Source: a virus. From it: a stretch of 64,000 nt of DNA. The DNA lies in IMG/VR virus record IMGVR_UViG_3300027831_000001, positions 1 to 64,000 of that record; one strand, written 5' to 3'. This document shows positions 9,330 through 57,172 of the stretch, one piece after another; the first letter of the stretch is position 1, and each line of letters starts with the position of its first letter. A program made the translations under genes and the position numbers. The notes beneath the pieces were generated by a model, which saw nothing but the letters and a program-made list of their open reading frames with translations, ran no database searches and was not told where the DNA came from.

Positions 9330-9511
9330 GCCAGGCCTGGGAGGTGTGGCGTCTGGCCGCCGTGGAGAAGGTCGCGACGCTGGCCGAGATCCGCGACCAC
9401 TGGACCATGGACGCCGTGCTGGACGCGAACGACTGCCTGGACCACCAGATCGACCTGACGACGTGGCTACGCGGGCCGGCGCCGCCGAAGACAGAGCAGC
9501 GCCGCCGGTAG
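9246..9511 (+). CDS. Tail assembly chaperone extension by -1 frameshift
   Basis: In the -1 frame a good coding stretch follows (Gly-Gln-Ala-Trp-Glu-Val-Trp-Arg-Leu-Ala-Ala-Val-Glu-Lys-Val-Ala) and ends at TAG 9511. It has no start of its own. That TAG forms the -10 of the next gene's class C signal, supporting 9511 as a used stop. The shift site is not certain; the G-run at 9246-9250 (GAT GGG GGA) is the best candidate I see, and it is not a perfect X-XXY-YYZ heptamer. Confidence 0.55.
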
Positions 9512-9520
9512 CCTCCCACC

Positions 9521-9970
9521 ATGGCCCGCCTGGTCAAGTACGCGAGCACGCTTGACCGCGCAGGCCTCCAGAACGTGACCCGCGGGTGGCGTTCGCTGAA
9601 CGGCGCCACGATCGAGTTCGGGGCCATGTCGCCCACCGGGGGCCCGCCGCCCGAGCACACGGGCCACGACGGCAAGCCCAAGGGCGTGACGACGAACGAC
9701 GTCTTGAGGTTCATCGAGTTCGGGACGCCCACGATGGCCGAGCGCCCGGTGATCCGCTTCGTCCAGGCCACCATGCGCCAAGAGATGCGCGAGGGTGCGG
9801 CCGCGGTGTCGCGTGCCGTCGCGGCCCGGCGCGCCCACGTGCCGCTGCTCCACGCCCTGGGCGAGCGGCTGGCCCAGGCAACGCGCGCCCGGATCCAGTC
9901 CGTGGACGCGATCGACACGGGGCAGACGCTGCGATCGATCCACTACCGGCTGGGCCGGCGAGGGCCGTAG
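9521..9970 (+). CDS. HK97 gp10-like morphogenesis protein
   Basis: 149 residues. Start 6 nt after TAGCCT (class C, with TAG being the upstream stop). Ile-Glu-Phe-Gly-Thr-Pro-Thr-Met-Ala-Glu-Arg-Pro-Val-Ile-Arg at about 66-80 matches the Phe-Gly-Thr ... Arg-Pro-Phe pattern of HK97 gp10/virion morphogenesis proteins, which act at the head-tail junction or in tail completion. Its place between chaperone and tape measure is slightly unusual. Confidence 0.6.
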   Translation: MARLVKYASTLDRAGLQNVTRGWRSLNGATIEFGAMSPTGGPPPEHTGHDGKPKGVTTNDVLRFIEFGTPTMAERPVIRFVQATMRQEMREGAAAVSRAVAARRAHVPLLHALGERLAQATRARIQSVDAIDTGQTLRSIHYRLGRRGP

Positions 9971-9979
9971 CCTCCCGCC

Positions 9980-12555: not shown

Positions 12556-12987
12556 ATGAGCACCTTTGGCGCATGGCTCGACACCCTGAGCCGCGACGGC
12601 GGCGACACGGACCGCATGCAAGCGGGCGACACCGGGATCCCGCTGGCCCAGATCCGGCAGCACGCCCACACGGTGGAGCAACGCGACCCGCACGGCAACG
12701 CGGTGGCGGCCTGGGCCACCGATGGCATGAAGATCGAGATCGCCCTGTTCGATTTCTGGTGGTCCAACGCCGACCGCGGCGATCCCCACTATGTGCTGCT
12801 GGCCCGGTTGTCCGGCTTTGTGTTCCACCCTCCGACGGAGCCGACCGCGGAGGCTCGCCACCTGTGGATCGGCGACCGCGACGGATACCTGTACTACCCC
12901 GATTTCGACGTGCTGGCCTGGTGGTTCGGCGTTGTGGCACGGGTCTACGGCGAGACCCAGGCGCGTCAGTACGGCGCACCGGTCTAG
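12556..12987 (+). CDS. Unrecognised baseplate-region protein, 143 aa
   Basis: ATG follows a duplicated TGCTAGCGTTGCTAGC signal (class B). The protein has many Trp, Tyr and Asp residues and alternating strands (Tyr-Val-Leu-Leu-Ala-Arg-Leu ... Leu-Trp-Ile-Gly-Asp-Arg-Asp-Gly-Tyr-Leu-Tyr-Tyr). It lies between the Dit-like and plug genes, so a baseplate role is plausible. No family recognised. The TAG stop forms part of the next start signal. Confidence 0.65.
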   Translation: MSTFGAWLDTLSRDGGDTDRMQAGDTGIPLAQIRQHAHTVEQRDPHGNAVAAWATDGMKIEIALFDFWWSNADRGDPHYVLLARLSGFVFHPPTEPTAEARHLWIGDRDGYLYYPDFDVLAWWFGVVARVYGETQARQYGAPV

Positions 12988-12996
12988 CCTCCCGGG

Positions 12997-14814: not shown

Positions 14815-15313
14815 CCTCGCCCGCTTGCTCGCCCGTCTGCCCCGCGTGGGCGAGGTCACGGCCGCTCGGCTCGCCGCTGCCATCGGGGCCCAGCCGGAGG
14901 ACTACCGGCGAGCCCTGGCCTGCGCGGTGGAGCAAGAGGCCCAGGTCCTACGGTGCTCGATCTGTGGCGACGACGTGGACGGCCCGACCTGTGGGTGCGA
15001 GCGCGGACCGGCCGAGACGATCCTGGTCGTCACGACGCCGGCCGCTCGCCGCTCGATCACCCGGGCTTGGCCCGGCCGTTACCACGTGCTGGGCGGGCTC
15101 GGTCTGGCGGCCGTCCCGGGCACCCGTGCGCTCCTGGAGCGGTGCCGCGACGGGCAGGTGCGCGACGTCGTGCTGGCCCTGGGCGGCTCGCCCGAGGCAC
15201 GGGAGACCGACGCCACGCTGGCCCGGGTCCTAGGCCCCGTGGGGCCCACCGGCGGCCCCTCTAGCCTCCGAGCGTGGCGGCCCTCCGACAGTACGACCGC
15301 GGGGTCGGGCTGA
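14804..15313 (+). CDS. RecR-like recombination mediator
   Basis: 169 residues with RecR architecture in order. A helix-hairpin-helix comes first (Leu-Ala-Arg-Leu-Pro-Arg-Val-Gly, residues 9-16). A four-Cys zinc motif follows (Cys-Ser-Ile-Cys-Gly ... Cys-Gly-Cys, 51-65). A Toprim-like domain at about 72-147 includes the hallmark Tyr-His-Val-Leu-Gly-Gly (93-98). Bacterial RecR is about 200 residues, so this one is shorter at the C-terminus. The first Toprim acidic position, normally Glu, is Thr-Thr here (Leu-Val-Val-Thr-Thr-Pro). RecR loads RecA on gapped DNA with RecO/RecF. In a phage it may aid repair or dampen host recombination. The 3' end overlaps the hub gene by 40 nt. Confidence 0.75.
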   Translation: MADSLARLLARLPRVGEVTAARLAAAIGAQPEDYRRALACAVEQEAQVLRCSICGDDVDGPTCGCERGPAETILVVTTPAARRSITRAWPGRYHVLGGLGLAAVPGTRALLERCRDGQVRDVVLALGGSPEARETDATLARVLGPVGPTGGPSSLRAWRPSDSTTAGSG

Positions 15314-17947: not shown

Positions 17948-17954
17948 AAGAATC

Positions 17955-17983
17955 AAGCTAGTACGAACGCGGCATCCGGTCAA
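17955..17983 (-). promoter_or_regulatory. Class A early promoter, near-consensus
   Basis: TTGACC (17983-17978), 17-nt spacer, TAGCTT (17960-17955), 7 nt to GTG 17947. The upstream box is ATGTCGCTTTTCGG. The further GGCTATCTTCG is the complement of the class C signal of the divergent amidase gene, as at 4142. Confidence 0.85.
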
Positions 17984-18021
17984 CCGAAAAGCGACATGAC
18001 CCCGAAGATAGCCTCCCAGGC

Positions 18022-20397: not shown

Positions 20398-20772
20398 ATG
20401 CCTTCAACCTGGGCCGTCGATCCCACGACGCTTGATCTTGTGCTCGACGACCAGGGCTTCACGCTCGTCGATGGCATCGAGGCCATCGAGCAGGACCTGC
20501 GGCTATACCTGGGGCTCCGGCAGGGCGAGATCCCAACGCGCCTGGATCTTGGCATCCCGTGGGGCCCGTTGCTCGAGAGCGGCGCGAGCCCGGGCGTGCT
20601 GGCTCAGGTCGTGGGAGAGCGCGGCGTCTTGTCGCGCCCCGGCATCGTGGCCCAGCAGACCACGGTGGAGATCGAGGACCGCACGGCGACGGTGAGCTAC
20701 GCGGCCCAGGCGAGCCTGGCCGACCAGCGACGACGAGCTGCACTGCGCGGCTCGATCACGATCCTGGTGTAG
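20398..20772 (+). CDS. Baseplate wedge protein, gp25 / Mu gp46 type
   Basis: 124 residues. Start 6 nt after TACCAT. Ala-Ile-Glu-Gln-Asp-Leu-Arg-Leu-Tyr-Leu-Gly-Leu-Arg-Gln-Gly-Glu-Ile-Pro-Thr-Arg followed by Leu-Gly-Ile-Pro-Trp is characteristic of the gp25/Mu gp46 family, which joins sheath to wedge. Located between spike and J genes, as usual. Confidence 0.8.
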   Translation: MPSTWAVDPTTLDLVLDDQGFTLVDGIEAIEQDLRLYLGLRQGEIPTRLDLGIPWGPLLESGASPGVLAQVVGERGVLSRPGIVAQQTTVEIEDRTATVSYAAQASLADQRRRAALRGSITILV

Positions 20773-20782
20773 CCTTCGGGCC

Positions 20783-20986
20783 ATGCAAACCGACTCGCTC
20801 TCGATGGCCTTCGCTGACGCATCTCGCCTGGAAGCCCTGAGCCCCGGGGACAGCACGGTCGTGCTCGTGCTCGACGGCCAGCACGGTGGCGCGCCGGCCA
20901 CGATCACCATCGTGGCCACGCCGGCCGAGATCCTGGAGGCCATCACGGCCATGGCCCAGCAGGCCCGCGCGGCGCTCCTGCCCTAG
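20783..20986 (+). CDS. Small baseplate-module protein, 67 aa
   Basis: Start 7 nt after TAGCCT, where TAG is the stop of the gp25-like gene. Two beta-like stretches (Ser-Thr-Val-Val-Leu-Val-Leu-Asp and Ala-Thr-Ile-Thr-Ile-Val) are followed by a helix of Ala. The class C start and neighbours suggest a structural or assembly role. Unrecognised. Confidence 0.6.
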   Translation: MQTDSLSMAFADASRLEALSPGDSTVVLVLDGQHGGAPATITIVATPAEILEAITAMAQQARAALLP

Positions 20987-20995
20987 CCTCCCGCC

Positions 20996-22544: not shown

Positions 22545-23375
22545 ATGAGTGCATTCGATGTCCAGCACCGCGACGCCTTCGATTCGCTCGTGGCCGCACG
22601 GGATGCCGGCGGGGCCGATCTGGTGCTCACGAGCCCGCCCTACCCGGACGCGCGGGAGAATCACGAGGGCTATGCGACGTTCGACACCACGCTTGAGGGC
22701 TACCACCGGCTGGGCCGCGCCGTGTTCGATGCGCTCAAGCCCGGGGGCGTGTGCGCGCTCAACGTCGATGGGCCCGTCAAGGTGTGGCGGCCCGAGCTTG
22801 GCGAGAGCGAACGGAGCTTGATCGCGTTCGAGGTGGCGCTTGATTGGGCCAAGGTGATCGGGTTCCGGTACCTAGAGCACTGCGCGTACGTGCGCGATGG
22901 TGCACCGGGTCGTTTCTGGGTGCGGTGGCGCAGCGGTTGGGAGCCAGTACACGTGTTCGCTCGGCCCGGCGCAAACCCGCACTTTGACCACACGGCCTAT
23001 CAGACCCCGGCTGTATCGGCGGGCGCACGACAGAAGACGACGACGCGCCACCCGGACGGGCGAACGATCAAGAACCCCGCGCACGTACAAGCGGACACGC
23101 GACAGGTGACGACGGCTCTGTGGTGCAAGCCAGGGACCACGGAGCAAGAGCACCACGCGCCATTCTCCCGCGTTCTCGCCGATGCCTACGTGCTTTGCTA
23201 CTCCCCGCCCGACGGCCTCGTGTGCGACCCATTCGTTGGCTCCGGCACCGTAGCCCTGGCCTGCCATCGCCACGGCCGGCGCTTCGTGGGCGGCGACCTC
23301 GGCCACCGCGAGCGCGACGGCCGGCGCTGGGTCGACATCGTGAACGAGCAACTCGGCCAGGGCCGGCTGTTCTAG
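22545..23375 (+). CDS. DNA methyltransferase, SPPY type
   Basis: 276 residues. Motif IV Leu-Thr-Ser-Pro-Pro-Tyr near 28-33 and C-terminal motif I Cys-Asp-Pro-Phe-Val-Gly-Ser-Gly-Thr-Val near 227 place it in the beta class. SPPY most often indicates cytosine-N4 methylation, though adenine-N6 is not excluded. No restriction partner is adjacent, so it is an orphan that probably protects phage DNA. Start 7 nt after TACTTA (class B), inserted between the J and I genes. Confidence 0.8.
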   Translation: MSAFDVQHRDAFDSLVAARDAGGADLVLTSPPYPDARENHEGYATFDTTLEGYHRLGRAVFDALKPGGVCALNVDGPVKVWRPELGESERSLIAFEVALDWAKVIGFRYLEHCAYVRDGAPGRFWVRWRSGWEPVHVFARPGANPHFDHTAYQTPAVSAGARQKTTTRHPDGRTIKNPAHVQADTRQVTTALWCKPGTTEQEHHAPFSRVLADAYVLCYSPPDGLVCDPFVGSGTVALACHRHGRRFVGGDLGHRERDGRRWVDIVNEQLGQGRLF

Positions 23376-23384
23376 CCTCCCGCC

Positions 23385-24080
23385 ATGGCCTTCGTCCCCC
23401 CGGTCACGTTCGGCACGATCCCCTGGGCCCAGCGCGAGGGCACGGACCAGACGGACCGCGACGCGCCCCTGCTGCCGATCGGGCCGGGGGAGCTGGACGC
23501 CGAGACGACGGCCCGCCGCCGCCGGTGGTACCAGCTGAGCAACGCCCCGGGGTGGGACACCCTGCTGACCCTGATCGGCCAGGGCATGGCCCACATGGAG
23601 GCCGCCGTGGGCTCGGTCGATCAAGGCCGATGGCTCGTCAACGCCGAGGGGACCGTGTTGGACGAGATCGGCGCGCTCGTGGGGCGCCCGCGGCAGGGCT
23701 TGAGCGATGCGCTCTACCGGCTGGCCATCCGGGCCGAGGCCGCGTCACTGCTCTCGAGCGGCACGATCCCCGAGCTCGTGGAGCTGACGCGATCGCTCCT
23801 TGGTGACGACGTGCGGGTGCGCGAGATCTGGCCGGCCACGATCGTGATCTCGGCGCCCGACGTCGCGACCGACGTGTTCCTTGTTTTGTTGGACGTCCTG
23901 GCCGACGTGCCGGCCGCGGGCGTCGGCGCCCTGCTGTCCACCTGGACCGCCGCCGACGTGGGCGGCTACGCGAGCACGACGGGCGCGACGACGCGCGAGC
24001 CTGGCCGCTACGGGAGCACCACGGGGGTCAGCGACTCTCGATCGTGGTACGCCACCGGGCAGCCGATCGGCGGCGAATAG
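23385..24080 (+). CDS. Baseplate/tail protein I-like (DUF2612-like)
   Basis: 231 residues. Residues about 50-130 (Asn-Ala-Pro-Gly-Trp-Asp-Thr-Leu ... Leu-Asp-Glu-Ile-Gly-Ala-Leu-Val-Gly-Arg-Pro-Arg ... Leu-Tyr-Arg-Leu-Ala-Ile-Arg) resemble DUF2612/tail protein I proteins that connect wedge to fibre. The C-terminal 40 residues are Gly/Ser/Thr-rich, with a repeated Gly-Tyr/Arg-Tyr-x-Ser-Thr-Thr-Gly. Class C start on the methyltransferase stop. Confidence 0.65.
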   Translation: MAFVPPVTFGTIPWAQREGTDQTDRDAPLLPIGPGELDAETTARRRRWYQLSNAPGWDTLLTLIGQGMAHMEAAVGSVDQGRWLVNAEGTVLDEIGALVGRPRQGLSDALYRLAIRAEAASLLSSGTIPELVELTRSLLGDDVRVREIWPATIVISAPDVATDVFLVLLDVLADVPAAGVGALLSTWTAADVGGYASTTGATTREPGRYGSTTGVSDSRSWYATGQPIGGE

Positions 24081-24089
24081 CCTCCCGGT

Positions 24090-31016: not shown

Positions 31017-31072
31017 GCAACACACCTAGCACACTGGACCATCACGCGCAACCCGCCCCGTAGGCTCCCGCC

Positions 31073-36028: not shown

Positions 36029-36049
36029 GGTGCCGGTAGCCTCGCGCCC

Positions 36050-36830: not shown

Positions 36831-38537
36831 GTGATCCTCGCCCCCGATGACCTGCTGCCGAGCGGTCCAGCTCGCTGGACCCGGGAAGCCGTGGGCGAGG
36901 CCTGGGCCACATGCCGCCGCGCGCTCCGGGCCGCCTTGGCCGATCCGACGATCGAGACCGTGGTGTGCCTCGCCGGGGCGCCGGCCTCGGGCAAGAGCAC
37001 GTGGACGCGCGACCACGACGAGCCGGGCCTGGTGGTCTTTGATGCGTGCTGGGCCGAGCCGGGACGGCGGCGCGCGCTGGCCCAGCAGATCCGGCAGGCC
37101 GGCAAGGTCGCGATCGCCGTGTGGGTCGTGACCCCGTTGGAGGTCTGCCGGGAACGCAACGCCGCACGCCCGCCCGATCGCCACGTGCCCGACGGGGCCC
37201 TGACGCGCTCCTGGCTGGCCCTGCGCGAGTGCCCGCCCTCGCTGGCCGAGGGGTGGAGCCGGGTGCTCGTGCAGGACGGCACGGCCCCGCGGGTGCACGA
37301 CGACGCGCTCCCGCCTGAGCGGCAGCTGGAGCGGCTCGGGCAGGCGCCGGCCAACCAGGCTTGGGCGCTCGCGCGCGGGCGCGTGCTACCGGCCTACCGG
37401 GAGGCCATGGCGCGCCTGGGAGAGCGCCGCGGGGCCGAGCCGCCGCCCCGGGTGGCCCAGTCGCTGCGGTCGCTCGCCAGGGCGTTGGAGCGCGGGCAGG
37501 CCGGCGACGACCAGGTGGGCCGGAGCCTGGGCCGGATCGGAGCTCGGGTGGAGCGGGCAGCTGTGCGCGAGGTCCAGACCCTGGTGGGCGAGCTCGTGCC
37601 GGGGTGGACGGCTGAGCCGCAAGACGAAGCGGTCTCGGACTGGGCCGAGCGGGTGGGCCAGCAGGTGGCCGACGTGCGGCGCCGGCTCGCGCCCGGGATC
37701 GATGCCGCGGTGGCCGAAGCATGGCGCAAGGGCTGGACCGCGGCGGAGCTCGAGCGCCACTGGAAGGAGCACGGCTTGCCGCTTGACGGCGGCGGGACGG
37801 CGGAGGGCCAAGGATCCGTGCTGGCCCACGACGCCCACGCGGGCCTGGTCCAGGAAGCGACGCGCGCGCACCAGGAAAGCGCGGGCCTCGACTGGTACGA
37901 ATGGGAGCACAACCCCAGCGCGCACCCACGGCCCGAGCATGTGGCCCGCCACGGCCAGGCCTTCCAGTGGAGCAAGCCGCCGGCCGACGGGCACCCCGGG
38001 ACGCTGCGCAACTGCCGGTGTCGCGCCGTGCCGCTCGTCCGGCCCCAGGATGTGGAGCGGCTGCGCGCCGTCGAGCGCCCGGCGATCTCAAGCGCTCCGC
38101 CGCCGACGGCGAAGATCGAACCCGGGAGCCGCGGCAACACGCGCGACCCGATCCCGTTGGAGCTCGACGCCCCGACAAAAGAGGCTGCCGTTGCGGCGCT
38201 GGGCCGCGTGGGCCTGCGGGGTGTCGACATCATCGCGACCCGCAAGGGGCGATCGGGCGTTGGCCGCTACCAGGGCACGGACCCCGCGCGAGCCTCTCGG
38301 ATCGCCTTGGGCCAAGAGGGCCAGGCTGACGACGGGAAGCCCGTCGAGCCTCTGCGGATCCTGATCGAGATCGAGCACGACGGGACGACGAGCATGCACC
38401 TGCGGGACGGCAACCACAGGGCGATCGGCGCGCGCGAGGCCGGGGCAACGCATCATGTGGCCGAGGTCGTGATCGCGCGCGAGACCGCCGGGGGCTGGAC
38501 CGAGCAGAAACCATTCACGGCCGCCGTGGCCCTCTAG
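36831..38537 (+). CDS. P-loop kinase - MuF - DGNHR-domain fusion
   Basis: 568 residues, GTG start. Residues 45-165 form a P-loop kinase of polynucleotide-kinase type (Gly-Ala-Pro-Ala-Ser-Gly-Lys-Ser-Thr, 49-57). Residues about 225-402 are a Mu F-like minor head protein, ending in the typical Trp-Tyr-Glu-Trp-Glu-His ... Leu-Arg-Asn-Cys-Arg-Cys-Arg-Ala (355-399). Residues 425-568 are a separate domain with Leu-Arg-Asp-Gly-Asn-His-Arg-Ala-Ile (524-532), like the ParB/Srx-type Asp-Gly-x-His-Arg motif. MuF proteins attach to the portal and can carry effectors into the cell. A kinase at the N-terminus is not something I know from the family. Confidence 0.75.
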   Translation: MILAPDDLLPSGPARWTREAVGEAWATCRRALRAALADPTIETVVCLAGAPASGKSTWTRDHDEPGLVVFDACWAEPGRRRALAQQIRQAGKVAIAVWVVTPLEVCRERNAARPPDRHVPDGALTRSWLALRECPPSLAEGWSRVLVQDGTAPRVHDDALPPERQLERLGQAPANQAWALARGRVLPAYREAMARLGERRGAEPPPRVAQSLRSLARALERGQAGDDQVGRSLGRIGARVERAAVREVQTLVGELVPGWTAEPQDEAVSDWAERVGQQVADVRRRLAPGIDAAVAEAWRKGWTAAELERHWKEHGLPLDGGGTAEGQGSVLAHDAHAGLVQEATRAHQESAGLDWYEWEHNPSAHPRPEHVARHGQAFQWSKPPADGHPGTLRNCRCRAVPLVRPQDVERLRAVERPAISSAPPPTAKIEPGSRGNTRDPIPLELDAPTKEAAVAALGRVGLRGVDIIATRKGRSGVGRYQGTDPARASRIALGQEGQADDGKPVEPLRILIEIEHDGTTSMHLRDGNHRAIGAREAGATHHVAEVVIARETAGGWTEQKPFTAAVAL

Positions 38538-38546
38538 GCTCCGGGC

Positions 38547-38735: not shown

Positions 38736-39274
38736 GCTCCCCGCAGCGGCCCACGCTGGTGGACGTCGCGGCGCCGAGCCCCGACGTGTCGGGCGTGCAG
38801 CCGATCGCCCACGAGTCCACGCTGCTGCGCGACCTGGCCCGCGAAGCCCTCGCCGAGGTCAGGGGGCAAGCGGCCGCGCCTGCTCCAGCTGGTGGCGGTC
38901 CGGTGGCGCCCCGCATCGGATCCGCGACGCTTCTCGTCTTGGCCCTCGGCGGAGCCTTCCTGGTGCAGCGCGGCGAGGCGACGCGCGACTTGGTGGCCAC
39001 GGCCACGGCCGAGCAGGCCAAGGTGATCGCCACCATGGAGGCCCGGCTGGCTACCGTGGAGCAGGACCGCAGCGCCGACCGAGGACGCGAGATCAAGCGT
39101 GATGACGCACTGCGCGAAGCCCTGTTCGTCCTGGCCGAGGACTCGCGCGCCGTCTGGGATGCGCTTGAGGTCCTGCACGGCAACACGGCGCCGGCCGGCG
39201 CCGCACCGCTGCGCAAGCCCACGACGTCAAGCCGGCTCACGGGGCTGCGCGACACCGTGGGTCGCGTGGAGTAG
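38732..39274 (+). CDS. Membrane plus coiled-coil protein, spanin-like, 180 aa
   Basis: GTG 38732 overlaps the holin-like stop. Polar residues 1-60 are followed by a transmembrane helix at about 64-78 (Ala-Thr-Leu-Leu-Val-Leu-Ala-Leu-Gly-Gly-Ala-Phe-Leu-Val). A long Ala/Glu/Arg coiled coil and a short basic C-terminus follow. This suits an inner-membrane spanin, but the long N-terminal tail is atypical; a holin-associated protein is an alternative. Confidence 0.5.
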   Translation: MSSPQRPTLVDVAAPSPDVSGVQPIAHESTLLRDLAREALAEVRGQAAAPAPAGGGPVAPRIGSATLLVLALGGAFLVQRGEATRDLVATATAEQAKVIATMEARLATVEQDRSADRGREIKRDDALREALFVLAEDSRAVWDALEVLHGNTAPAGAAPLRKPTTSSRLTGLRDTVGRVE

Positions 39275-39283
39275 CCTCGCGCC

Positions 39284-40113: not shown

Positions 40114-40833
40114 CTAGCCCAGGCCCGGCAGCCCCAGCGTCACGCCCGACGGCACGCCCACCATGGCCTCCGCGCGCGCGAGGTGTGGCCGTGCCCGGTC
40201 CTGCGCAGCCTGCCAGACCTCGCGCTCCAGCTCGGCGCCGACGAAGCGCCGGCCCTCCAGGATGGCCGCGATCCCGGTCGTGCCCTCGCCGGCATGGGTG
40301 TCCAGCACCAGGTCGCCGGGGCGGCTGTAGTCCCGCACGATGGCCCTCATGACCCCCAACGGCTTGCCCCCGCGCCGTGGGCTCCGCTCGTCGCCGGGCC
40401 GACGCACGTAGGCACCGGGGTTCGACCAGCCGCCTAGCCAGGCCTTGGCCTTGGGGCGCGAGGCGATCAGGTAGCAGGCCCAGGACGCCGGGCCGTCGCC
40501 TTGCTGCCTGACCGTCATACCCATGTCGACGATGGGCACCGGGGCGAACACGTACCGGCCCGCGCGCTCTAGGGCCGCGCTCCAAACCGGCGCCAAGATG
40601 TGGCAGGTGATCGAACAGAACCACCCGCACACGCGGGGAGACCAGTGCTCCACGTGCTCGTCCACCATCGCGGGCGTCATCGCCTCGTAGCCCAGCGACC
40701 CGCTCACCTCCAGGCCATCGTTCCCGTCGTGCACCTTGGCCGAGTAGGGCGCATCGAAGATCGCTGCGTCGACATCCTGGATGTCGGCCAAGGCGGTCTG
40801 CCATGGGCCGTGGCGTAGGTCGAAGATCGCCAC
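40114..40833 (-). CDS. DNA methyltransferase-like protein, DAPY type
   Basis: 239 residues, GTG start right after the upstream TAG. Motif IV reads Phe-Asp-Ala-Pro-Tyr (26-30) and motif I Leu-Asp-Thr-His-Ala-Gly-Glu-Gly-Thr-Thr-Gly (near 177-187). These stand for the usual DPPY and DPFxGSGTT, so it is a beta-class enzyme with divergent motifs. Lys-Pro-Leu-Gly-Val-Met-Arg precedes motif I, as in active relatives. Activity and base specificity are uncertain. Third methyltransferase in the window. Confidence 0.7.
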   Translation of the reverse strand: MAIFDLRHGPWQTALADIQDVDAAIFDAPYSAKVHDGNDGLEVSGSLGYEAMTPAMVDEHVEHWSPRVCGWFCSITCHILAPVWSAALERAGRYVFAPVPIVDMGMTVRQQGDGPASWACYLIASRPKAKAWLGGWSNPGAYVRRPGDERSPRRGGKPLGVMRAIVRDYSRPGDLVLDTHAGEGTTGIAAILEGRRFVGAELEREVWQAAQDRARPHLARAEAMVGVPSGVTLGLPGLG

Positions 40834-42423: not shown

Positions 42424-42430
42424 GCCAACA

Positions 42431-42459
42431 CATCTAGCACGGCCGTCTGCCGGGGTCAA
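42431..42459 (-). promoter_or_regulatory. Promoter of the ERF operon, merged class A/B
   Basis: TTGACC (42459-42454), exactly 17 nt, TAGATG (42436-42431), 7 nt to ATG 42423. TCGG precedes the -35 as in the early class. The TGA stop of the upstream Gp157-like gene is inside TTGACC. Confidence 0.75.
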
Positions 42460-48289: not shown

Positions 48290-48673
48290 ATGCGTCTGGT
48301 CGTGGAGATCCCAGGCAACCCCTGGGCGGGCGCGATCAACCGCCGCGACCGAGCCGGGGTGACACGAGGGGGCCGGCTCTTCAACCGCAAGCAACCCGGG
48401 TTCAAGGCCTACCAGGCCACGGTGGAGCAATGGGCCCGGCAGGCCGCGCGGCTCCAGGGCGTGCGGTTCGGCCCCGCGCTGGTCCGGGTCGCGATCGTCC
48501 TGGGCGTGCCGGACCGCCGCCGCCGCGACCTGGACGGCCCGATCAAGGCGATCCTGGACGGCTGCACGAAGGCCGGGATCTGGGCCGACGACTCGCAGGT
48601 GTGGCGGCTCGCGGTGGAGAAGGCGCTGGGCGAGCCCCGGGCCGTGCTGACCGTGCGAGCGTGGCAAGGTTGA
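48290..48673 (+). CDS. rusA: RusA-like Holliday junction resolvase
   Basis: 127 residues, the usual RusA length. The catalytic acidic cluster is visible: Arg-Arg-Arg-Asp-Leu-Asp-Gly-Pro-Ile-Lys (77-86), Ile-Leu-Asp-Gly (88-91) and Trp-Ala-Asp-Asp-Ser-Gln-Val (98-104). It cuts branched DNA before packaging and during recombination. The TGA stop is within the TTGACC of the next promoter. Confidence 0.85.
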   Translation: MRLVVEIPGNPWAGAINRRDRAGVTRGGRLFNRKQPGFKAYQATVEQWARQAARLQGVRFGPALVRVAIVLGVPDRRRRDLDGPIKAILDGCTKAGIWADDSQVWRLAVEKALGEPRAVLTVRAWQG

Positions 48674-48698
48674 CCGCTTGGCCGGCATGTGCTAGCTA
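48670..48698 (+). promoter_or_regulatory. Promoter with TTGACC and 17-nt spacer
   Basis: TTGACC (48670-48675), 17 nt, TAGCTA (48693-48698), 7 nt to ATG 48706. Overlaps the end of rusA. Confidence 0.75.
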
Positions 48699-48705
48699 GG
48701 TTGGC

Positions 48706-49044
48706 ATGAGTGCGCTACGCCCGAGCAACGCCGACGTGCGCCGAGCCGTGCAGGTCGGATGGCGCGGCGTGGAGCTCGGTCTGGACACCGTGCCGGGCGT
48801 GGTGCTGGCTGACGTCAGGGCGTCCGGTGACGACGGAGAGCCGTGGACGAGCCCCACGGCTCTCGTGGTCCATGTGTGGGGCGGAGAGCCAGCGCGAGTC
48901 TGGGCACGCATGCTAGAGCACCGGGTCCACGGGTGGACGCTCGTTGCCCAGGTGTGGCCCGTGTCGCGGTGGGCGCGGCTGCGGGCCTGGTGGCGGTGGG
49001 CAACGTGGCCGCTTGTGCGGTGGCTGGATCGGGGGCAGGGATGA
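48706..49044 (+). CDS. Unrecognised protein, 112 aa, Trp-rich C-terminus
   Basis: Start 7 nt after TAGCTA. The N-terminal 75 residues look like a small alpha/beta domain. The C-terminal 35 have seven Trp (Trp-Pro-Val-Ser-Arg-Trp-Ala-Arg-Leu-Arg-Ala-Trp-Trp-Arg-Trp), possibly an amphipathic membrane-surface helix. Overlaps the next gene (ATGA). Unknown. Confidence 0.6.
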   Translation: MSALRPSNADVRRAVQVGWRGVELGLDTVPGVVLADVRASGDDGEPWTSPTALVVHVWGGEPARVWARMLEHRVHGWTLVAQVWPVSRWARLRAWWRWATWPLVRWLDRGQG

Positions 49045-49289
49045 TCGATCCGCGGGACAGGACCGATGCGCAGTTGAGCGCGGCGATCGATCGGGCCTAC
49101 GTGTTTCACGTGTACCGCGATATGGATGGGCGGACTCGCCCGGTTGCACGGGAAGCCGCACCGCTGAAAGCGCACGCAGTGGCACGCGAAGCGCTGCGCA
49201 AGTCTCCAGACGCATATCAGATCGCCGTGCGGCCAAACTTGACCCCTCCGACTTGGACAGCATGGATCTTGCCCGGGGGCCGCCGATGA
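49041..49289 (+). CDS. Unrecognised protein, 82 aa
   Basis: ATG overlaps the previous stop and its TGA overlaps the sigma gene start. Mixed sequence, Asp-Arg-Ala-Tyr-Val-Phe-His-Val-Tyr-Arg near residue 20 and a helix at 40-60. Third of a string of coupled genes leading into the sigma factor. Confidence 0.6.
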   Translation: MIDPRDRTDAQLSAAIDRAYVFHVYRDMDGRTRPVAREAAPLKAHAVAREALRKSPDAYQIAVRPNLTPPTWTAWILPGGRR

Positions 49290-50572
49290 CGCGCGGCAAG
49301 ACCACGCCCCGCGGCGAAGCCATCGCGGTACGGACCCGCGTGCTCGCGCAGTCGCTGGGCCAGGCCCGGGTGGACTACTGGGCGGCCCTGCTCGCGCGCC
49401 CGCAACTCGCCGCGCCGATCGTCCACGCCGTGCGGCTGGACGTGGAGACGGGCGGCTGGGAGCGACGCCTGGGCCGGCTGGTCGCGCACGCCCGGACGCT
49501 CGTGCAGACCCGGCGGCGCGGCGACGAGATCCGCTACGCCAAGGCATGCCGGCGCGCGGCCGAGTGGCTGGCCCAGCAGGACCGCGGGTGCGACGTCGCC
49601 AATGGTGTCGCCGATGCGATCGCGCTCTGGGCCGGGCGCCGGCTACCGGGCGATCACCGGTGGGCGGGCCACCGGCTCTACCCGGCCCGCACCCAGAGCC
49701 AGCGGTGGCGCCAATACTGGCACGCCGTGGACCACGGACGACGCGAGCGCGAGCGGCTGCGCAACGAGATCGTGGTGGTCAACGAAGGCCTGGTGATCAC
49801 GCTGTGCAACCGGTGGATCCCGTGGGCCGAGGGGCACTTGAGCCGCGAGGACATCCAGCAGGCCGGGCGGGAGGGGCTGTTCCGAGCCGCAGACCTGTTC
49901 GAGCCAGAGCGCGGCTTCCGGTTCTCCACCTACGCGGGCGGGTGGATCCGCCATCGGGTGTTCCGGCTCCACCAAGAGGGCCGCTCCGACGTCAGGGCCC
50001 CAACGGGCGTCCAGATGGTGGCGCTCGCGATCTCGGATCTGGCCGAACGGGGCGAGCGCGACCCGGCGACGATCCGCGCCGCTCTCCGCCGGCGTGCAGC
50101 CGAGAAGCGCGAGGCCGCGATCCGTCTCGCCCGCACGCCCGCGGCCCAGGCCAAGCTCCGCGCCGCACGGGTGAAGGAGCCGCCGACCGAGGACGCGATC
50201 GCGTCGGCGCTCGAGTACCTGGCGAGCCGCACGATCTCAATGGACGCGCGGCTAGGACGGAGTGAGGAGGGCCGCCCGCAGACCCTGGCCGACCTGCTGC
50301 CCGACACGTCGCCGCTGGCCGACGAGGTGATCGATCTGTGCCGACTCGAGGAGAGGCTGGCCGCCGTGGACACCGAGCGCGTGACGGCGCGGCTGCTCCA
50401 GGCCGTGGCGGGACTCGACCCCCGCGACCGAGACCACGTGCGAGCTCGCTACTACCGGGGCCGCACGCTGCACAGCCTGGCGGGCGAGCGCGGGACGTCA
50501 GCGCGAGACCTAGAGCGACACGAGCAGGCGATCCTGGATCGGCTCCGCGCCGACGTGGGGATCACGGCATGA
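49286..50572 (+). CDS. Sigma-70-family factor encoded by the phage
   Basis: 428 residues. Region 2 lies at about 158-235: Asn-Glu-Ile-Val-Val-Val-Asn-Glu-Gly-Leu-Val near 160, the core-binding Asp-Ile-Gln-Gln-Ala-Gly-Arg-Glu-Gly-Leu (189-198), and the -10-binding Phe-Arg-Phe-Ser-Thr-Tyr-Ala-Gly-Gly-Trp-Ile-Arg (211-222). Region 3 is near 240-330. Region 4 is at about 360-422, with an HTH Thr-Leu-His-Ser-Leu-Ala-Gly-Glu-Arg-Gly-Thr-Ser (394-405). The first 150 residues are a helical domain not known from sigma factors. It should redirect host RNA polymerase to phage promoters. ATG coupled to upstream gene; next gene coupled downstream. Confidence 0.8.
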   Translation: MTRGKTTPRGEAIAVRTRVLAQSLGQARVDYWAALLARPQLAAPIVHAVRLDVETGGWERRLGRLVAHARTLVQTRRRGDEIRYAKACRRAAEWLAQQDRGCDVANGVADAIALWAGRRLPGDHRWAGHRLYPARTQSQRWRQYWHAVDHGRRERERLRNEIVVVNEGLVITLCNRWIPWAEGHLSREDIQQAGREGLFRAADLFEPERGFRFSTYAGGWIRHRVFRLHQEGRSDVRAPTGVQMVALAISDLAERGERDPATIRAALRRRAAEKREAAIRLARTPAAQAKLRAARVKEPPTEDAIASALEYLASRTISMDARLGRSEEGRPQTLADLLPDTSPLADEVIDLCRLEERLAAVDTERVTARLLQAVAGLDPRDRDHVRARYYRGRTLHSLAGERGTSARDLERHEQAILDRLRADVGITA

Positions 50573-50769
50573 GAGGAACGGAGCACATGGGACGACAACG
50601 CAAGGGAATCAAGCAGCCGGTCCTGGGACGAATCGAGTACGTCAAGGACAGCACGATCACGATCAGTTGGCACGGAAGCGCCAAGGACCTGCACCGACTA
50701 TTGAACGTCATGGAAAACCGGCAAGACGTGGAGATCACGATCGCGCCGGCGCGAGAGGAGATGACGTGA
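50569..50769 (+). CDS. Small protein downstream of the sigma factor, 66 aa
   Basis: ATG overlaps the sigma stop. An internal ATG at 50587 with GGAG 6 nt upstream is an alternative start. Sequence (Arg-Ile-Glu-Tyr-Val-Lys-Asp-Ser-Thr-Ile-Thr-Ile-Ser-Trp-His) is beta-like, then Leu-His-Arg-Leu-Leu helix. Its tight coupling raises the possibility of an anti-sigma or co-factor; not shown by sequence. Confidence 0.6.
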   Translation: MRGTEHMGRQRKGIKQPVLGRIEYVKDSTITISWHGSAKDLHRLLNVMENRQDVEITIAPAREEMT

Positions 50770-51785
50770 TGATGACTCAATATCAAGACGGCCGGTTGAA
50801 GGCCAAGATCGAAGAGTGGACGCCCAGCGCAGGCCAGCAGATCGCTTTGGGCCAGTCGCACGGGATGGTCGTGCGGGTGTACGACCATGGCCCCGCCGAC
50901 GGGCAAGCCCAGGCGCCGCGGATGATCTTCGATTCCGAGCAGCGCCACGCCACGGCGGGGATCTTCGGCGACACGGCCGAGGCCGCCGACTACGCGGGCC
51001 GGATCGAGATAGCGCTGCTGATCGCCGCGCGATGGCGCGAGACGATCCAGCACGAGCGCCGCGAAGCCTGTCCGGCTCGCCAGCGCGAGCACTGGCATCG
51101 CCGCGACCTGGCCAAGGCGGAGGCCAGCGAGGCCAACAAGCGGGCCAAGCAGCACGGCGAGGACGCGGAGCGGTTGGCCAAGGAAGCCGACGATCCCGAG
51201 GTGCAGGTGGATGTGCCGCTGAGGGCAGGCGGCTACGCGGTAAAACTCGGCCCATCGCTGACCGATGGCACGGCCGAGACCGAGGAATGGCGCGTCCTGG
51301 TTTCGCACGAGGGCGCACCGATACGGCCGCAGAGCAGGGATCGCCGCCGCCACGGGCCGCCTGCCAAGAAGGCAGCGGAGCCCGACGAGCCCAGCACGCT
51401 CGTCGACGAGGCACTGGCCGAGACGGCGGCCAAGCGCCCCGGCCGTGATCCCGCGGCCGACCGCGCGGCGTTTGACGAGCCGGCCGAGCCCAAGAGCAAG
51501 GGCCGCAAAGGGCGGAGCAAGGCGCCTGCTCTGCCCGACCATGTGCCGGATGCCGCCGGCCTGCCGATCAAGATCGGCAGCAAGGTGGAGCTCGAAGACC
51601 ACCGAGGCGACGGCTACACGGCCGAAGTGGCGTCGATCGATCGATACGACGCCAAGATCGGACAGTGGGTGATCACCGTGGAGGACCTGCATAGCGGCGC
51701 CCCGGCCGAGGTCCTGTCCAGGGAGTGCCGTCGCCTAGATCCGCCACCCGAGCCCACGGAGGAGGACCCGGACGACGCGGCTTGA
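50769..51785 (+). CDS. Unrecognised protein with C-terminal SH3/KOW-like part, 338 aa
   Basis: ATG overlaps the previous TGA (TGATG); GTG 50766 is possible. Residues 1-110 are mixed, 110-170 helical and charged. Residues 200-290 form a basic Lys/Ala/Pro linker with Lys-Gly-Arg-Lys-Gly-Arg-Ser-Lys. Residues 290-335 are a small beta domain (Ile-Gly-Ser-Lys-Val-Glu-Leu-Glu-Asp ... Trp-Val-Ile-Thr-Val-Glu-Asp-Leu). Could bind DNA or chromatin-like complexes. The TGA stop is in the next -35. Confidence 0.6.
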   Translation: MMTQYQDGRLKAKIEEWTPSAGQQIALGQSHGMVVRVYDHGPADGQAQAPRMIFDSEQRHATAGIFGDTAEAADYAGRIEIALLIAARWRETIQHERREACPARQREHWHRRDLAKAEASEANKRAKQHGEDAERLAKEADDPEVQVDVPLRAGGYAVKLGPSLTDGTAETEEWRVLVSHEGAPIRPQSRDRRRHGPPAKKAAEPDEPSTLVDEALAETAAKRPGRDPAADRAAFDEPAEPKSKGRKGRSKAPALPDHVPDAAGLPIKIGSKVELEDHRGDGYTAEVASIDRYDAKIGQWVITVEDLHSGAPAEVLSRECRRLDPPPEPTEEDPDDAA

Positions 51786-51810
51786 GTGGCCGGGTCAGCC
51801 GTGCTAGCTT
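51782..51810 (+). promoter_or_regulatory. Promoter with TTGAGT and 17-nt spacer
   Basis: TTGAGT (51782-51787), 17 nt, TAGCTT (51805-51810), 6 nt to ATG 51817. The stop TGA of the upstream gene is within TTGAGT. Confidence 0.7.
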
Positions 51811-51816
51811 GGCGGA

Positions 51817-52152
51817 ATGAGCACGACGAACAAAGTGAAAGCCGTGAGTGACAGGCTCCGGCCCGAGATGGTGCATGCGATGAGGGTCGGGTTCGCCAAC
51901 AGCGGACCGACCAGTAAGGGCTTGGTGGCGCGGCGTCTGGCCTGCCCGGGTAGCCGGGCCCACGATCTGCGGTTCACCCCGATGGGTCGGCAGTGGGCCT
52001 CCATGCTGTGCATGATGGCCCGGGTCCACGCGACGCTGTACGCAGCGCGCGAGTTGCTCCAAAGCGAGCACTTCGATCGCAAGGCCCAGGCCGACGTGGA
52101 ATCGGCCCTGGCCGGGTGCATGACCGCGATCCGCCCGGTGGTGTGGCCATGA
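51817..52152 (+). CDS. Unrecognised helical protein, 111 aa
   Basis: Start 6 nt after TAGCTT. Met-Ser-Thr-Thr-Asn start, then Leu-Arg-Pro-Glu-Met-Val-His-Ala-Met-Arg and a helical bundle with Cys and Met (Trp-Ala-Ser-Met-Leu-Cys-Met-Met-Ala-Arg-Val-His). Coupled to the next gene (ATGA). Unknown. Confidence 0.6.
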   Translation: MSTTNKVKAVSDRLRPEMVHAMRVGFANSGPTSKGLVARRLACPGSRAHDLRFTPMGRQWASMLCMMARVHATLYAARELLQSEHFDRKAQADVESALAGCMTAIRPVVWP

Positions 52153-52667
52153 CGCGCCGAGTCGAGGCACTCGTGGTCCTGCAAGACCACGACGAAGGAG
52201 ACGAAGACTTCGGTCCTCGCCCAGCGACGCGCGGAGAGTGCCGCGAAGGCGAGAGACCATGTCCTTGGGTCGCATGCCGCTATCACCTAGCGGTGGAGAT
52301 CGGCGTTGACGGATCGCTGAGGCAGCGCCGAGATCCCGATCCGATCGAGTCGTCGACGCTGCCGACATGCGCGCTGGACGTAGCGGCCGAAGGGGAGCAC
52401 ACCCTAGGGGAGATCGGCGCCGTCATGACGCTGGCGCGCGAGCGGGTGCGCCAGATCGAGCTGTTGGCGACCCGGAAGTTCCGGGCCGCTGCAAAGCGCA
52501 TGGGCTTCGACCTGGTGGCTTTGCTACCGCCGGAGCTACCGGCAGGCCACGCATGGGCGGCCGCTGGTGATGAGTGGATCAGGGGCGAGGCGACCCCGGC
52601 CCACATGAAGCGCTACCAGGCTAAGCGCTACCAGGCCAAACGGGCGCGCAAGGCAGGTGCCGCTTGA
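52149..52667 (+). CDS. Sigma region 4-like DNA-binding protein, 172 aa
   Basis: Residues about 40-60 have Glu-Arg-Pro-Cys-Pro-Trp-Val-Ala-Cys-Arg-Tyr-His-Leu. Residues about 80-125 have Cys-Ala-Leu-Asp-Val-Ala ... Thr-Leu-Gly-Glu-Ile-Gly ... Ala-Arg-Glu-Arg-Val-Arg-Gln-Ile-Glu, the classic sigma-70 region 4 helix-turn-helix. Similar stand-alone proteins with CPxxxCRxHL plus region 4 exist in bacteria and phages. It lacks region 2, so it may act as a regulator at -35 elements rather than a full sigma. The C-terminus repeats Lys-Arg-Tyr-Gln-Ala. Confidence 0.7.
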   Translation: MTRRVEALVVLQDHDEGDEDFGPRPATRGECREGERPCPWVACRYHLAVEIGVDGSLRQRRDPDPIESSTLPTCALDVAAEGEHTLGEIGAVMTLARERVRQIELLATRKFRAAAKRMGFDLVALLPPELPAGHAWAAAGDEWIRGEATPAHMKRYQAKRYQAKRARKAGAA

Positions 52668-52924: not shown

Positions 52925-53433
52925 GGCGGCGGCCCAGCACGTGCCCCCAGGGCCACGCGGTGCGGCGCAATGGCAAGCGCTGGTGGTGCTGGGTCTGCGA
53001 TCGCGAAGTGGAGCCGCGCGCCCACCCGACGGCCAAGCTTGCCCGCCGCCGGGTCAAGCCGCTGGGCAGCGCGGAGAAGAGGGCCCGGACGCGCGCGCGG
53101 GCGTTCGGCGAGTCGGAGCGCATGGCATGGCTCCACTCGCTCCCATGCGTGGCCGCCGGGCGACCGGGTCACGTATGCGGCCCGTGGGACATGGAGCGCG
53201 GCGGGCCGCACATTCAGGCCGTACACGTGCGAGCGCGCGGGGCCGGTGGCACGGCGGATGATGTCGTGCCGGGCTGCTGGGTCCTGCACGAGCAGGCGGG
53301 CGAGCGCGGCACGGAGCAGCGCCGACGGTGCGAGGCCGAGCTGGGCCTGGATCTCGAGGCCGAAGCGGCGAGGCTTGCCCAGGAGTGGCGCGACTTGTGC
53401 CAGGCCGGCGAGTGTGCTAGCGTGGCGGAATGA
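52918..53433 (+). CDS. HNH/DUF968-like nuclease, 171 aa
   Basis: GTG 52918 (or 52915) overlaps the previous stop. An N-terminal zinc ribbon shows Cys-Pro-Gln-Gly-His and Cys-Trp-Val-Cys. The second half has Trp-Leu-His-Ser-Leu-Pro-Cys-Val ... Gln-Ala-Val-His-Val-Arg-Ala-Arg-Gly-Ala-Gly-Gly ... Asp-Val-Val-Pro-Gly-Cys ... Leu-His-Glu-Gln. This follows the Cys ... His-Val-Arg-x-Arg-Gly-Ala-Gly-Gly pattern of DUF968/NinB-region recombination nucleases. ATGA overlap with the next gene. Confidence 0.65.
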   Translation: MLGRRPSTCPQGHAVRRNGKRWWCWVCDREVEPRAHPTAKLARRRVKPLGSAEKRARTRARAFGESERMAWLHSLPCVAAGRPGHVCGPWDMERGGPHIQAVHVRARGAGGTADDVVPGCWVLHEQAGERGTEQRRRCEAELGLDLEAEAARLAQEWRDLCQAGECASVAE

Positions 53434-56400: not shown

Positions 56401-56666
56401 TGGGCGCCCCTCCCGAGCCGTGGACCGTGGTCGAAGGCGGCGGGCTCGGTCGTGATGACCTGCGGCTCATCTCGCGCCCGTGGCACTCGGGCACCATGTA
56501 CGCCGGAGTCTCGTACAAGGGCTGGCTGACGTGCTTCGTGGACGACGCGAGCATGCCCACAGCGATGCCCCCCGAGGCCGCGGCGTGGCTGCTCGCCAAG
56601 ACCAGCGGACGCGACCCACGTGAACCGGTGCGCCCCATGAGCGACGAGCCCGGGGGTGCCCCGTGA
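53430..56666 (+). CDS. Giant modular protein, 1078 aa, unrecognised
   Basis: ATG 6 nt after TAGCGT. Modules seen: N-terminal beta domain (1-100); coiled coil at about 155-330; helical part to about 480; a Cys-rich region at about 525-610 with Cys-Ser-Cys-Ala-Asp-Cys, Cys-Pro-Cys-Cys and Cys-Pro-Asp-Cys ... Cys-Asp-Glu-Cys (two or more zinc sites). Pro-rich linkers with a repeated Ala-Thr-Pro-Thr-Ala-Pro-Lys/Gln-Glu-Pro-Glu (near 618 and 850) join further helical segments. The linker repeat is also visible in DNA (GCCAC[T/C]CCCACGGCTCCC at 55280 and 55978). It looks assembled from several phage domains. Role unknown. Confidence 0.7.
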   Translation: MSTKVLFQHADGQSAMMLVQEGDGLMIEIASGHRILSVALPEERRREVAAILDPAPDRGVEDHGIKWEPASMETDGFGVARVTHWRTKPDIDKSDDREDRTKPAPKTYLWRPAGGAWSWGIWVGGRGLPVGVRCATEAEALAITWQHHDEQVADVKRHAAWLADLHRAAERDIDRLAAAREQTAAAEQVVATLQATLRRERESRADARADGAAALALEIDQAVATHAPDAFHGDTWTTVSRVEALAQWWHESADVRDEWNGSLEELRAAARAEERAAVERELESGLRALGLRPHGTELLDLVRTVAEALEERRAEGRRDVLKRLFVHRAPVDYVADDETHALVYATYPTWAAAVDARDAIVAPASPKAAPPASHAVQPDVCAAEAKRQVARFHAWANDVADILDRPPRTTDPLEDIKTEVVRLKISIADARAEGVEQGRAQALSETMAALASLRWVQEWCRGLLASDDWARRALDKLDDVERRLVASPPVKGEWQPEHGPDQRGPDYYAARACAESRGELVEEHELGQVTRYRCSCADCPGLPWAPSSKQPHPCGKTPAAPLQGGTDADLSDEACPCCEEEVDDRKNFCPDCDLDVCDECFDGQRCGACASSVAAPVATPTAPKEPERYVTGAELERDMANADAIGDAARSYAEAYDTAGGDDFDPRAHAAFSRLLDAARRWMTADPKGPEPDEKHVAHTPTGRYCKACYSPLYGPDDMPTDLAIKLRWATALGMATQGLRAGHESGEMRSYPTSTERWGLPLPFTWAVEDGRWCVKRPHPHAPWPVDVGAIIDRRNAEDPAPSAPQGEPDAGRLRALTNAAEAYGQARHYGAPTEHAEALLVEASRAFATPTAPQEPEPETPDEREAAIVRRLAGEWGEIEVGPTESIDDVVSHIHGAGTVIMRMVNEVGDWRDWALRLAGRKMSDWRSDKATREAVEKLLAAAVKRGRTPEDVERDYAAGPEDFGGEDYSAEAPDETTRPAPLAAVPRVGAPPEPWTVVEGGGLGRDDLRLISRPWHSGTMYAGVSYKGWLTCFVDDASMPTAMPPEAAAWLLAKTSGRDPREPVRPMSDEPGGAP

Positions 56667-57163
56667 GCGTCGAAGAGTTCGCCGAGAGCATCGGCCGGGC
56701 CCGAGCCGCGCTTCCGGGCGGCACCCGCACTCTCGCCGGTGCCTGCCGCTTCTACGCGCCCACGGCCGCGGTGGAGATCGTGGGGGGCCGCGTGCAGGTG
56801 ACCGCGAGCCGCGGCGTGCTCACGCTGCGCCGCGAGAGCACGGCCGCCCCGTGGACGATGAGGGTCGCGCTCGACGGCGTGGCGTGGCCCGACGACGGCG
56901 ACGCCCCGACCGACGAGCCCTCGCTCGTGGCCGCCCTTGCTGCGGTCACCGGATGCCCGAGCAGCGCTCTCGAAAGCACTGCCGCGAGCCTGCGGTGGCT
57001 GGGCTCGCTCGGCGCAGACGTGGGCGACGAGCCGGAGCCACACGAAACCGACATGTGTTGCGTCTGCGATGGCGAAGGCGACGTCACAGAAGGCCACACG
57101 ACGTGGACGTGCACCGGCTGCGGAGGCTGCGGCTACAAAAGCGCGGCACCCCTGCGCCGGTAG
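56663..57163 (+). CDS. Protein with C-terminal zinc finger, 166 aa
   Basis: GTG overlaps the previous stop (GTGA). The N-terminal 120 residues are an Ala/Val-rich alpha/beta domain. The C-terminus holds Cys-Cys-Val-Cys-Asp-Gly-Glu-Gly ... Cys-Thr-Gly-Cys-Gly-Gly-Cys-Gly, a DnaJ-type Cys pattern, also seen at 17396. TAG stop is used in the next class C start. Unknown. Confidence 0.65.
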   Translation: MSVEEFAESIGRARAALPGGTRTLAGACRFYAPTAAVEIVGGRVQVTASRGVLTLRRESTAAPWTMRVALDGVAWPDDGDAPTDEPSLVAALAAVTGCPSSALESTAASLRWLGSLGADVGDEPEPHETDMCCVCDGEGDVTEGHTTWTCTGCGGCGYKSAAPLRR

Positions 57164-57172
57164 GCTCCAGGC

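What the first reader, a model, noticed from the sequence alone, without database searches (positions are those of the whole stretch)
49286..52667. Phage sigma factor plus a lone region-4 protein as candidate readers of the start code
The 428-residue sigma-70-family protein has clear regions 2 and 4 and an unfamiliar 150-residue N-terminal domain. 1.6 kb on lies a 172-residue protein with a Cys/His motif and region 4 only. Having both beside a genome with three promoter classes suggests a cascade: class A read by host sigma (good TTGAC), classes B or C by the phage factor. Assignment of factor to class is inference.
Basis: partly seen in the sequence, partly recalled or inferred. Interest (0 to 1): 0.75.

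Follow-up and report, generated by a model that had tools for sequence, protein, structure and literature searches.

The report
Phage sigma factor and promoter code
A bacterial virus known only from environmental DNA carries its own promoter-reading factor, which most likely switches the host's RNA polymerase to a set of very short late promoters placed directly against the virus's structural genes, plus a second small protein from a large unnamed viral family that probably reads the host's own kind of promoter instead.

Summary
The two genes are real. The 428-aa protein (49286-50572) is a sigma-70-family factor with regions 2 and 4. The 172-aa protein (52149-52667) has a Cys/His motif and only the second half of region 4. 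The promoter classes are also real: TAnnnT stands exactly 12 or 13 bases before 30 of 108 starts, the signature of leaderless mRNAs. But classes A (TTGAC) and C (TGCTAG) merge: hybrids exist and both precede ATGAGC/ATGAAC-type starts. Class B (TAGSCTCCSRSC touching the start codon, 17 genes) stands apart: no -35, no TGn, + strand only, and every class B gene with a recognisable product (8 of 8) is a virion or lysis gene. The sigma has lost the residues that read TTGAC and TGn, so B is its likeliest target (inferred). The small protein keeps the TTGAC-reading residues, so it probably acts at A/C-type promoters. It belongs to an unnamed four-Cys family found at 149 or more IMG/VR loci but not in 50,697 phage records. 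Rival: the host sigma reads all classes, since a lone -10 beside the ORF suffices in Deinococcus.

The parts
49286..50572 (+). Phage sigma-70-family factor (P0001, 428 aa): unknown N-terminal 150 aa, region 2 (aa ~160-242), region 4 (aa ~370-424)
52149..52667 (+). Lone region-4.2 protein (P0002, 172 aa): Cys/His domain (C31, C38, C43, H46, C74) plus recognition helix ARERVRQIE
48670..48705 (+). Hybrid A/C promoter heading the sigma operon: TTGACC, TGC-TAGCTA, then ATG at 48706
   Evidence: sequence
48706..49044 (+). First gene of the sigma operon (112 aa, no family)
49041..49289 (+). Second gene of the sigma operon (82 aa); its stop overlaps the sigma start (ATGA)
   Evidence: sequence
51782..51816 (+). 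Class C promoter of the operon that carries P0002: TTGAGT-17-TAGCTT, ATG at 51817
51817..52152 (+). Gene upstream of P0002 (111 aa); stop overlaps the P0002 start (ATGA)
9968..9979 (+). Class B element before the tape measure gene; its TAG is the stop codon of the previous gene
20984..20995 (+). Class B element before the baseplate wedge gene; TAG is the previous stop
23373..23384 (+). Class B element before a baseplate protein gene; TAG is the previous stop
9509..9520 (+). Class B element before the neck/tail completion gene; TAG is the previous stop
12985..12996 (+). Class B element before a virion structural gene; TAG is the previous stop
15262..15273 (+). Class B element before the baseplate hub gene
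18009..18021 (+). Class B element before the endolysin gene, divergent from a class A promoter, so no upstream stop codon is involved
31061..31072 (+). Class B element before the portal gene, in a divergent intergenic region
4196..4207 (+). Class B element, divergent from a class A-type TTGAC site
6101..6112 (+). Class B element, gene upstream of the tail sheath gene, divergent intergenic region
20770..20782 (+). Class B element; TAG is the previous stop
24078..24089 (+). Class B element; TAG is the previous stop
36037..36049 (+). Class B element
38535..38546 (+). Class B element; TAG is the previous stop
39272..39283 (+). Class B element; TAG is the previous stop
57161..57172 (+). Class B element; TAG is the previous stop
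2587..2622 (-). Class A promoter TTGACG-17-TAGGTT, start codon at 2586
5231..5266 (-). Class A promoter TTGACG-17-TAGCTT, start codon at 5230
17948..17983 (-). Class A promoter TTGACC-17-TAGCTT, start codon at 17947, divergent from the endolysin class B element
42424..42459 (-). Hybrid A/C promoter (TTGACC plus TGCTAG) of the ERF recombinase gene

Best explanation
A two-step transcription programme on host RNA polymerase. The host primary-sigma holoenzyme reads classes A and C, which are one promoter type (TTGAC and/or TGn plus TAGnnT, leaderless). One such hybrid promoter (48670-48705) makes the phage sigma. The phage sigma then takes the core to class B, a single 12-bp element (TAGSCTCCSRSC) that touches the start codon of late virion and lysis genes and often uses the previous gene's TAG stop as the first three bases of its -10. 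The sigma reads class B through the -10 and discriminator without a -35. The lone region-4 protein is a separate regulator of the -35-binding type, most likely occupying TTGAC elements of A/C promoters (of host or phage) to repress or retune them. Shown: gene identities, promoter classes, their gene sets, the residue changes. Inferred: which factor reads which class, timing, and the lone protein's role.
For: Leaderless geometry. Class B is distinct in element, discriminator (C at -6 in 16 of 17, C at -5 in 14 of 17) and downstream start context, and is on the + strand only. If the mRNA starts at the ATG, the conserved CC just after the hexamer is not transcribed, so it must act as DNA. Class B genes with a recognisable product are virion or lysis genes 8 of 8; A/C genes 0 of 3 (Fisher 0.006). 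Seven of 17 B elements do not use the stop codon of a called gene, and five of them lie in divergent regions, so B is not merely a stop-restart translation signal. P0001 has A, R, E, R where sigma70 has R584, E585, R588, Q589, and its region 3.0 does not keep H455/E458; R584/E585/R588 and H455/E458 are the -35 and TGn determinants (PMC2613000). P0002 keeps R, E, R, Q, its family helix matches primary sigma best, and no region-2 sigma was detected in 48 of 50 records searched, 49 of them family members. The sigma operon is behind a host-type promoter. No phage RNA polymerase was recognised among the large proteins scanned. In a distant relative (G004, portal 27-31% identical) seven homologues of class B genes lack class B elements, so B is lineage-specific.
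Against: No expression or binding data. The class B hexamer TAGSCT is still a TAnnnT that a host sigma could use, and TAGGCT/TAGGTT leaderless starts occur in other phages carrying the P0002 family and no detected sigma. P0001 has His at the Q437 position, which in sigma70 suppresses a T-to-C change at -12, while all class B elements have T (10 are forced by the stop codon). Host unknown; no relative of the sigma was found, so co-evolution cannot be tested. Whether G004 has a sigma elsewhere is unknown because it is a fragment. The functional segregation rests on 11 annotated genes.
Confidence: 0.5

Rival explanations
1. The host primary sigma reads all three classes; class B is an ordinary leaderless -10 promoter of the host's type, with late timing set by something else (copy number, a repressor or an activator). 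The phage sigma has another role, such as host reprogramming.
For: In Deinococcus a TANNNT next to the ORF is enough for a promoter (PMC12340547). TAnnnT at -12 is enriched in other P0002-family phages (32 against about 7 per offset), most of them without a detected region-2 sigma.
Against: Class B differs from A/C in discriminator, downstream start context, strand and gene set. A second sigma whose -35 and TGn residues are lost fits promoters without those elements.
Confidence: 0.3
2. The phage sigma and the lone region-4 protein act together as a split factor on one class, in the manner of T4 gp55 plus gp33.
For: They lie 1.6 kb apart; T4 uses separate genes for sigma2-like and sigma4-like parts (PMC2988020).
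Against: P0001 already has its own region 4. The P0002 family is widespread without a region-2 sigma. P0002 keeps TTGAC-reading residues that class B promoters give nothing to read, and lacks region 4.1. G004 has the P0002 homologue between structural genes.
Confidence: 0.08
3. Class B is a translation or stop-restart signal rather than a promoter.
For: Ten of 17 elements start with the stop codon of the previous gene, nine or ten bases before the next start.
Against: Five elements lie in divergent intergenic regions with no upstream gene on the same strand, including those before the endolysin and portal genes. TAGnnT sits at the same -12/-13 offset as in classes A and C.
Confidence: 0.07

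Closest known systems
T4 gp55 late sigma (with gp33 and gp45)
   Same: Phage-encoded divergent sigma-70-family factor that sends host core polymerase to late promoters (PMC2988020); T4 late promoters are, from general knowledge, a single -10-like element without a -35.
   Different: P0001 has a region 4 and a 150-aa N-terminal domain; class B is TAGSCTCC at a leaderless start, not the T4 late element; no gp33 or gp45 homologue was looked for.
Primary and alternative sigma-70 factors (RpoD, RpoS, RpoH)
   Same: P0001 region 2 aligns with RpoD/RpoS (E about 4e-10); region 4 is closest to RpoH.
   Different: Region 2.3 reads YAGGW where RpoD has YATWW, the Q437 position is His, all four -35 helix positions are changed, and there are about 30-40 extra residues after region 2.
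Leaderless -10 promoters of Deinococcus-Thermus (PMC12340547) and mycobacteria (PMC4633059)
   Same: TANNNT a few bases from the start codon, no 5' UTR.
   Different: Those are host promoters; here one subclass has its own conserved discriminator and gene set in a phage that carries a sigma.
Lone sigma-region-4 / HTH proteins (PF04545 only)
   Same: P0002 has the second half of region 4 with primary-sigma base-contact residues.
   Different: Fused to a conserved four-Cys domain (C31, C38, C43, H46, C74 in P0002) with no match in Pfam, PHROGs or the PDB; 149 or more loci in uncultivated phages.

Membership tests
sigma-70 family (P0001) | Region 2 (core binding, -10 melting) | tested here: met
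   PF04542 E 8e-9 over cut-off; RpoD/RpoS alignments
sigma-70 family (P0001) | Region 4 helix-turn-helix | tested here: met
   PF04545 22.4 bits in the protein scan (cut-off 24.1), 26.1 bits in the genome search; RpoH E 0.002; pLDDT about 70-83 over most of it
sigma-70 family (P0001) | -35 TTGAC contact residues R584, E585, R588 | tested here: not met
   A, R, E at those positions. This is a specificity feature, not needed for family membership
sigma-70 family (P0001) | Binds core and initiates transcription | not testable with these tools
   needs purified proteins
T4 gp55-type late sigma | Region 2 without region 4 | tested here: not met
   P0001 has region 4; so it may work like gp55 but is not filed as one
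T4 gp55-type late sigma | Late promoters are a single element next to the start site | tested here: inconclusive
   class B fits in form; start sites not mapped
four-Cys region-4 phage family (P0002) | C...CPxVxC..HL...CALD domain | tested here: met
   117 bits, E 4e-36 to a profile of 74 other loci, best shuffle 4 bits; invariant columns
four-Cys region-4 phage family (P0002) | Primary-sigma-like recognition helix RERxRQ | tested here: met
   ARERVRQIE
full sigma factor (P0002) | Region 2 | tested here: not met
   only profile positions 19-49 of region 4 match
leaderless promoters | TANNNT at fixed short distance from the start codon | tested here: met
   30 of 108 genes at -12/-13, p 2e-35 for -12
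leaderless promoters | Transcript 5' end at the start codon | not testable with these tools
   needs RNA data

The most novel reading that the evidence does not exclude
A phage sigma that reads promoters consisting only of a -10 plus discriminator (TAGSCTCC), placed so that the previous gene's TAG stop is the start of the -10 and the start codon is the transcription start, giving many late genes their own zero-length-leader promoter in a packed genome; alongside it, a widespread four-Cys, possibly metal- or Fe-S-binding, region-4 protein family by which uncultivated phages seize or silence TTGAC promoters of their hosts.
Probability: 0.3. Interest if true: 0.78.

Novelty: new variant of a known kind. 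Interest (0 to 1): 0.6.

Why it matters
If right, the promoter specificity of a divergent sigma could be worked out from one genome that carries 17 near-identical natural targets, directly testable with two proteins and short DNA templates. It would show late-gene control with no -35, no TGn and no 5' UTR, with stop codon, promoter and start codon packed into 15 bases. The lone region-4 family is common in environmental phages (at least 149 loci) but was not found in 50,697 phage records or 72,556 plasmids, so a frequent phage transcription regulator has no name or known function.

Tried and rejected
Relatives of the sigma by peptide patterns in viral contigs: none. Relatives by terminase: only another fragment of the same virus (100%). 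By major capsid: none. Portal and P0002 in genome contigs: none, so the host stays unknown. Scanning IMG/VR for class B (TAGCCTCCCGCCATG) found scattered, mostly single hits outside this virus, and no contig with a comparable set of class B elements. A class C pattern scan gave five scattered hits. A region 2.3 'YAG.WI' scan found three other sigmas, all with the Trp that P0001 lacks. Structure prediction of both proteins without an alignment was too poor for a fold search (mean pLDDT 42 and 43), so the N-terminal domain is unresolved and no fold search was run. H26, the only phage hit of P0002, is an ordinary RpoD fragment. Considered and rejected: class B as a Shine-Dalgarno or restart signal (divergent regions); C as a sigma-specific class (hybrids, shared start context); the two proteins as a fixed pair (2 of 50 records have a region-2 sigma).

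Full report
What was checked. The window is bases 1-64000 of a 67,951-base IMG/VR virus record, 69-75% GC per 2-kb stretch. P0001 (49286-50572, 428 aa) is a sigma-70-family protein with region 2 at E 8e-9 and region 4 at E 9e-5 and a PHROG sigma match at 4e-28 that starts at residue 155. P0002 (52149-52667, 172 aa) matches only the second half of region 4. There is no other region 2 or 4 in the genome. The genome is that of a contractile-tailed phage: tail sheath, tape measure, baseplate hub and wedge, portal, terminase, head protease, endolysin. No phage RNA polymerase was recognised among the large proteins scanned, so host core polymerase is presumably used.

The promoter classes. I called genes with a codon model that knows nothing of promoters and looked upstream. 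TAnnnT falls at -12 in 22 genes and at -13 in 8, and no more than twice at any offset from -60 to -16; TTGAC falls at -36 in 7 genes. That is a -10 whose transcription start would be the start codon itself: leaderless mRNAs, inferred from geometry. Class A: TTGAC-17-TAGnTT. Class C: TGCTAG (extended -10). Class B: TAGSCTCCSRSC touching the start codon, 17 genes (16 in the window, one at record position 66557). Strict B occurs 15 times on the + strand, never on the - strand, 0.25 expected.

Two systems, not three. Three promoters carry both TTGAC and TGCTAG (14461, 42423, 48706). Six of 18 class C sites have TTG at -38 to -34 with 17-18 bp spacing, class B 0 of 17 (p 0.019). A and C genes all begin [AG]TGA[GA][CT] (26 of 26 as listed, one false class A entry, 6706, removed and one minus-strand start re-read), class B genes never (0 of 17); a Fisher test run with the more cautious 25/26 against 1/17 gave 1e-9. 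B has instead C at -6 in 16 of 17 and C at -5 in 14 of 17. In a leaderless mRNA these bases are not transcribed, so their conservation points to DNA recognition. Eight of eight class B genes with a known product are virion or lysis genes; the three A/C genes with a known product are a methyltransferase, an ERF recombinase and a helix-turn-helix regulator (p 0.006). In ten B elements the TAG is the previous gene's stop codon; five lie in divergent regions, so B cannot be only a restart signal.

Which factor reads which class. In sigma70, R584 and E585 contact the -35 element at -31 and -33, R588 influences -33, and H455 and E458 read TGn (PMC2613000). P0001 has A, R, E, R at 584, 585, 588, 589 (SARDLERHE), and neither H455 nor E458 is kept in either alignment. 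It should therefore not depend on TTGAC or TGn, which are what A and C have and B lacks. Its own operon (48706, 49041, 49286, with ATGA overlap) is behind a strong host-type hybrid promoter, as a cascade needs. This is the basis of the assignment sigma to B; it is inference. Against it: His at the Q437 position is the sigma70 change that suppresses T-to-C at -12, while B has T, though ten of the 17 T are forced by the stop codon.

The lone region-4 protein. A profile from 74 of them scores P0002 at 117 bits, E 4e-36, shuffles at most 4 bits. A second search gave 149 loci encoding a relative. A cysteine that was not in the search pattern (C31 of P0002) is 99% conserved, making four Cys plus His46. 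The recognition helix is TRERVRQIE in most members, with base-contact residues kept in 54-56 of 57 parsed helices, and matches primary sigmas best. The Cys domain has no Pfam or PHROG name or solved relative. The family was not found in 50,697 phage or 72,556 plasmid records at E 1e-5. Only 2 of 50 records searched, 49 of them with the family, have a region 2. So P0002 is not specific to this sigma; it most likely binds TTGAC-type elements.

A distant relative. Record G004 (22.7 kb, 63% GC) shares about a dozen homologues at 24-49% identity, among them portal, protease, capsid, sheath, tape measure and baseplate proteins, and a P0002 homologue at 49%. None of its seven homologues of class B genes has a class B element; one (portal) has a plain leaderless TAGCGT. 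Class B is thus a feature of this lineage. Whether G004 has a sigma is unknown because it is a fragment.

Main rival. In Deinococcus a TANNNT next to the ORF is sufficient for transcription (PMC12340547), and other P0002-family phages show a modest excess of TAnnnT at -12 (32 against about 7). A leaderless-rich host could read A, B and C with its own sigma. I give this 0.3 and the phage-sigma-to-B reading 0.5.

Limits. Host unknown, no relative of the sigma, no usable structure, no RNA data. Start sites, timing and factor specificity are inferred from sequence.

Noticed in passing
window 422, 2953, 4884 (- strand starts): Several small minus-strand genes at the left end start with GTGAGC right after a G+C-rich hairpin-like sequence with a short T run (e.g. 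GCCCCG...CGGGGCTTGCGGCGT-GTG). Could be terminators or processing sites between genes.
   Followed up: no
window 4208, 18022 and record position 66557: Three divergent intergenic regions are near-copies: a TTGAC (class A) site one way, class B the other, with GGTCAACCGAAAA(G/T)CGACA between.
   Followed up: partly
window 22545-23375, 25740-27107, 40114-40833: Two N6/N4 DNA methyltransferases by Pfam and a third methyltransferase-like protein by eye.
   Followed up: no
L170 5626-15070 and L139 6176-11408: In other phages of the P0002 family, leaderless TAGGCT/TAGCTT starts lie just downstream of palindromes (AAAGTGAGGTCGACCTCACTTT; TGGACAAGCTTGTCCA), which look like operators.
   Followed up: no
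window 53430-56666: 1078-aa protein with no PHROG match, class C promoter, contains a Cys-rich CPCCEEEVDDRKNFCPDCDLDVCDECFDGQRCGAC stretch.
   Followed up: no
whole genome: TAG is the commonest stop codon (59 of 108; TGA 46, TAA 3), partly because class B -10 elements double as stops.
   Followed up: partly
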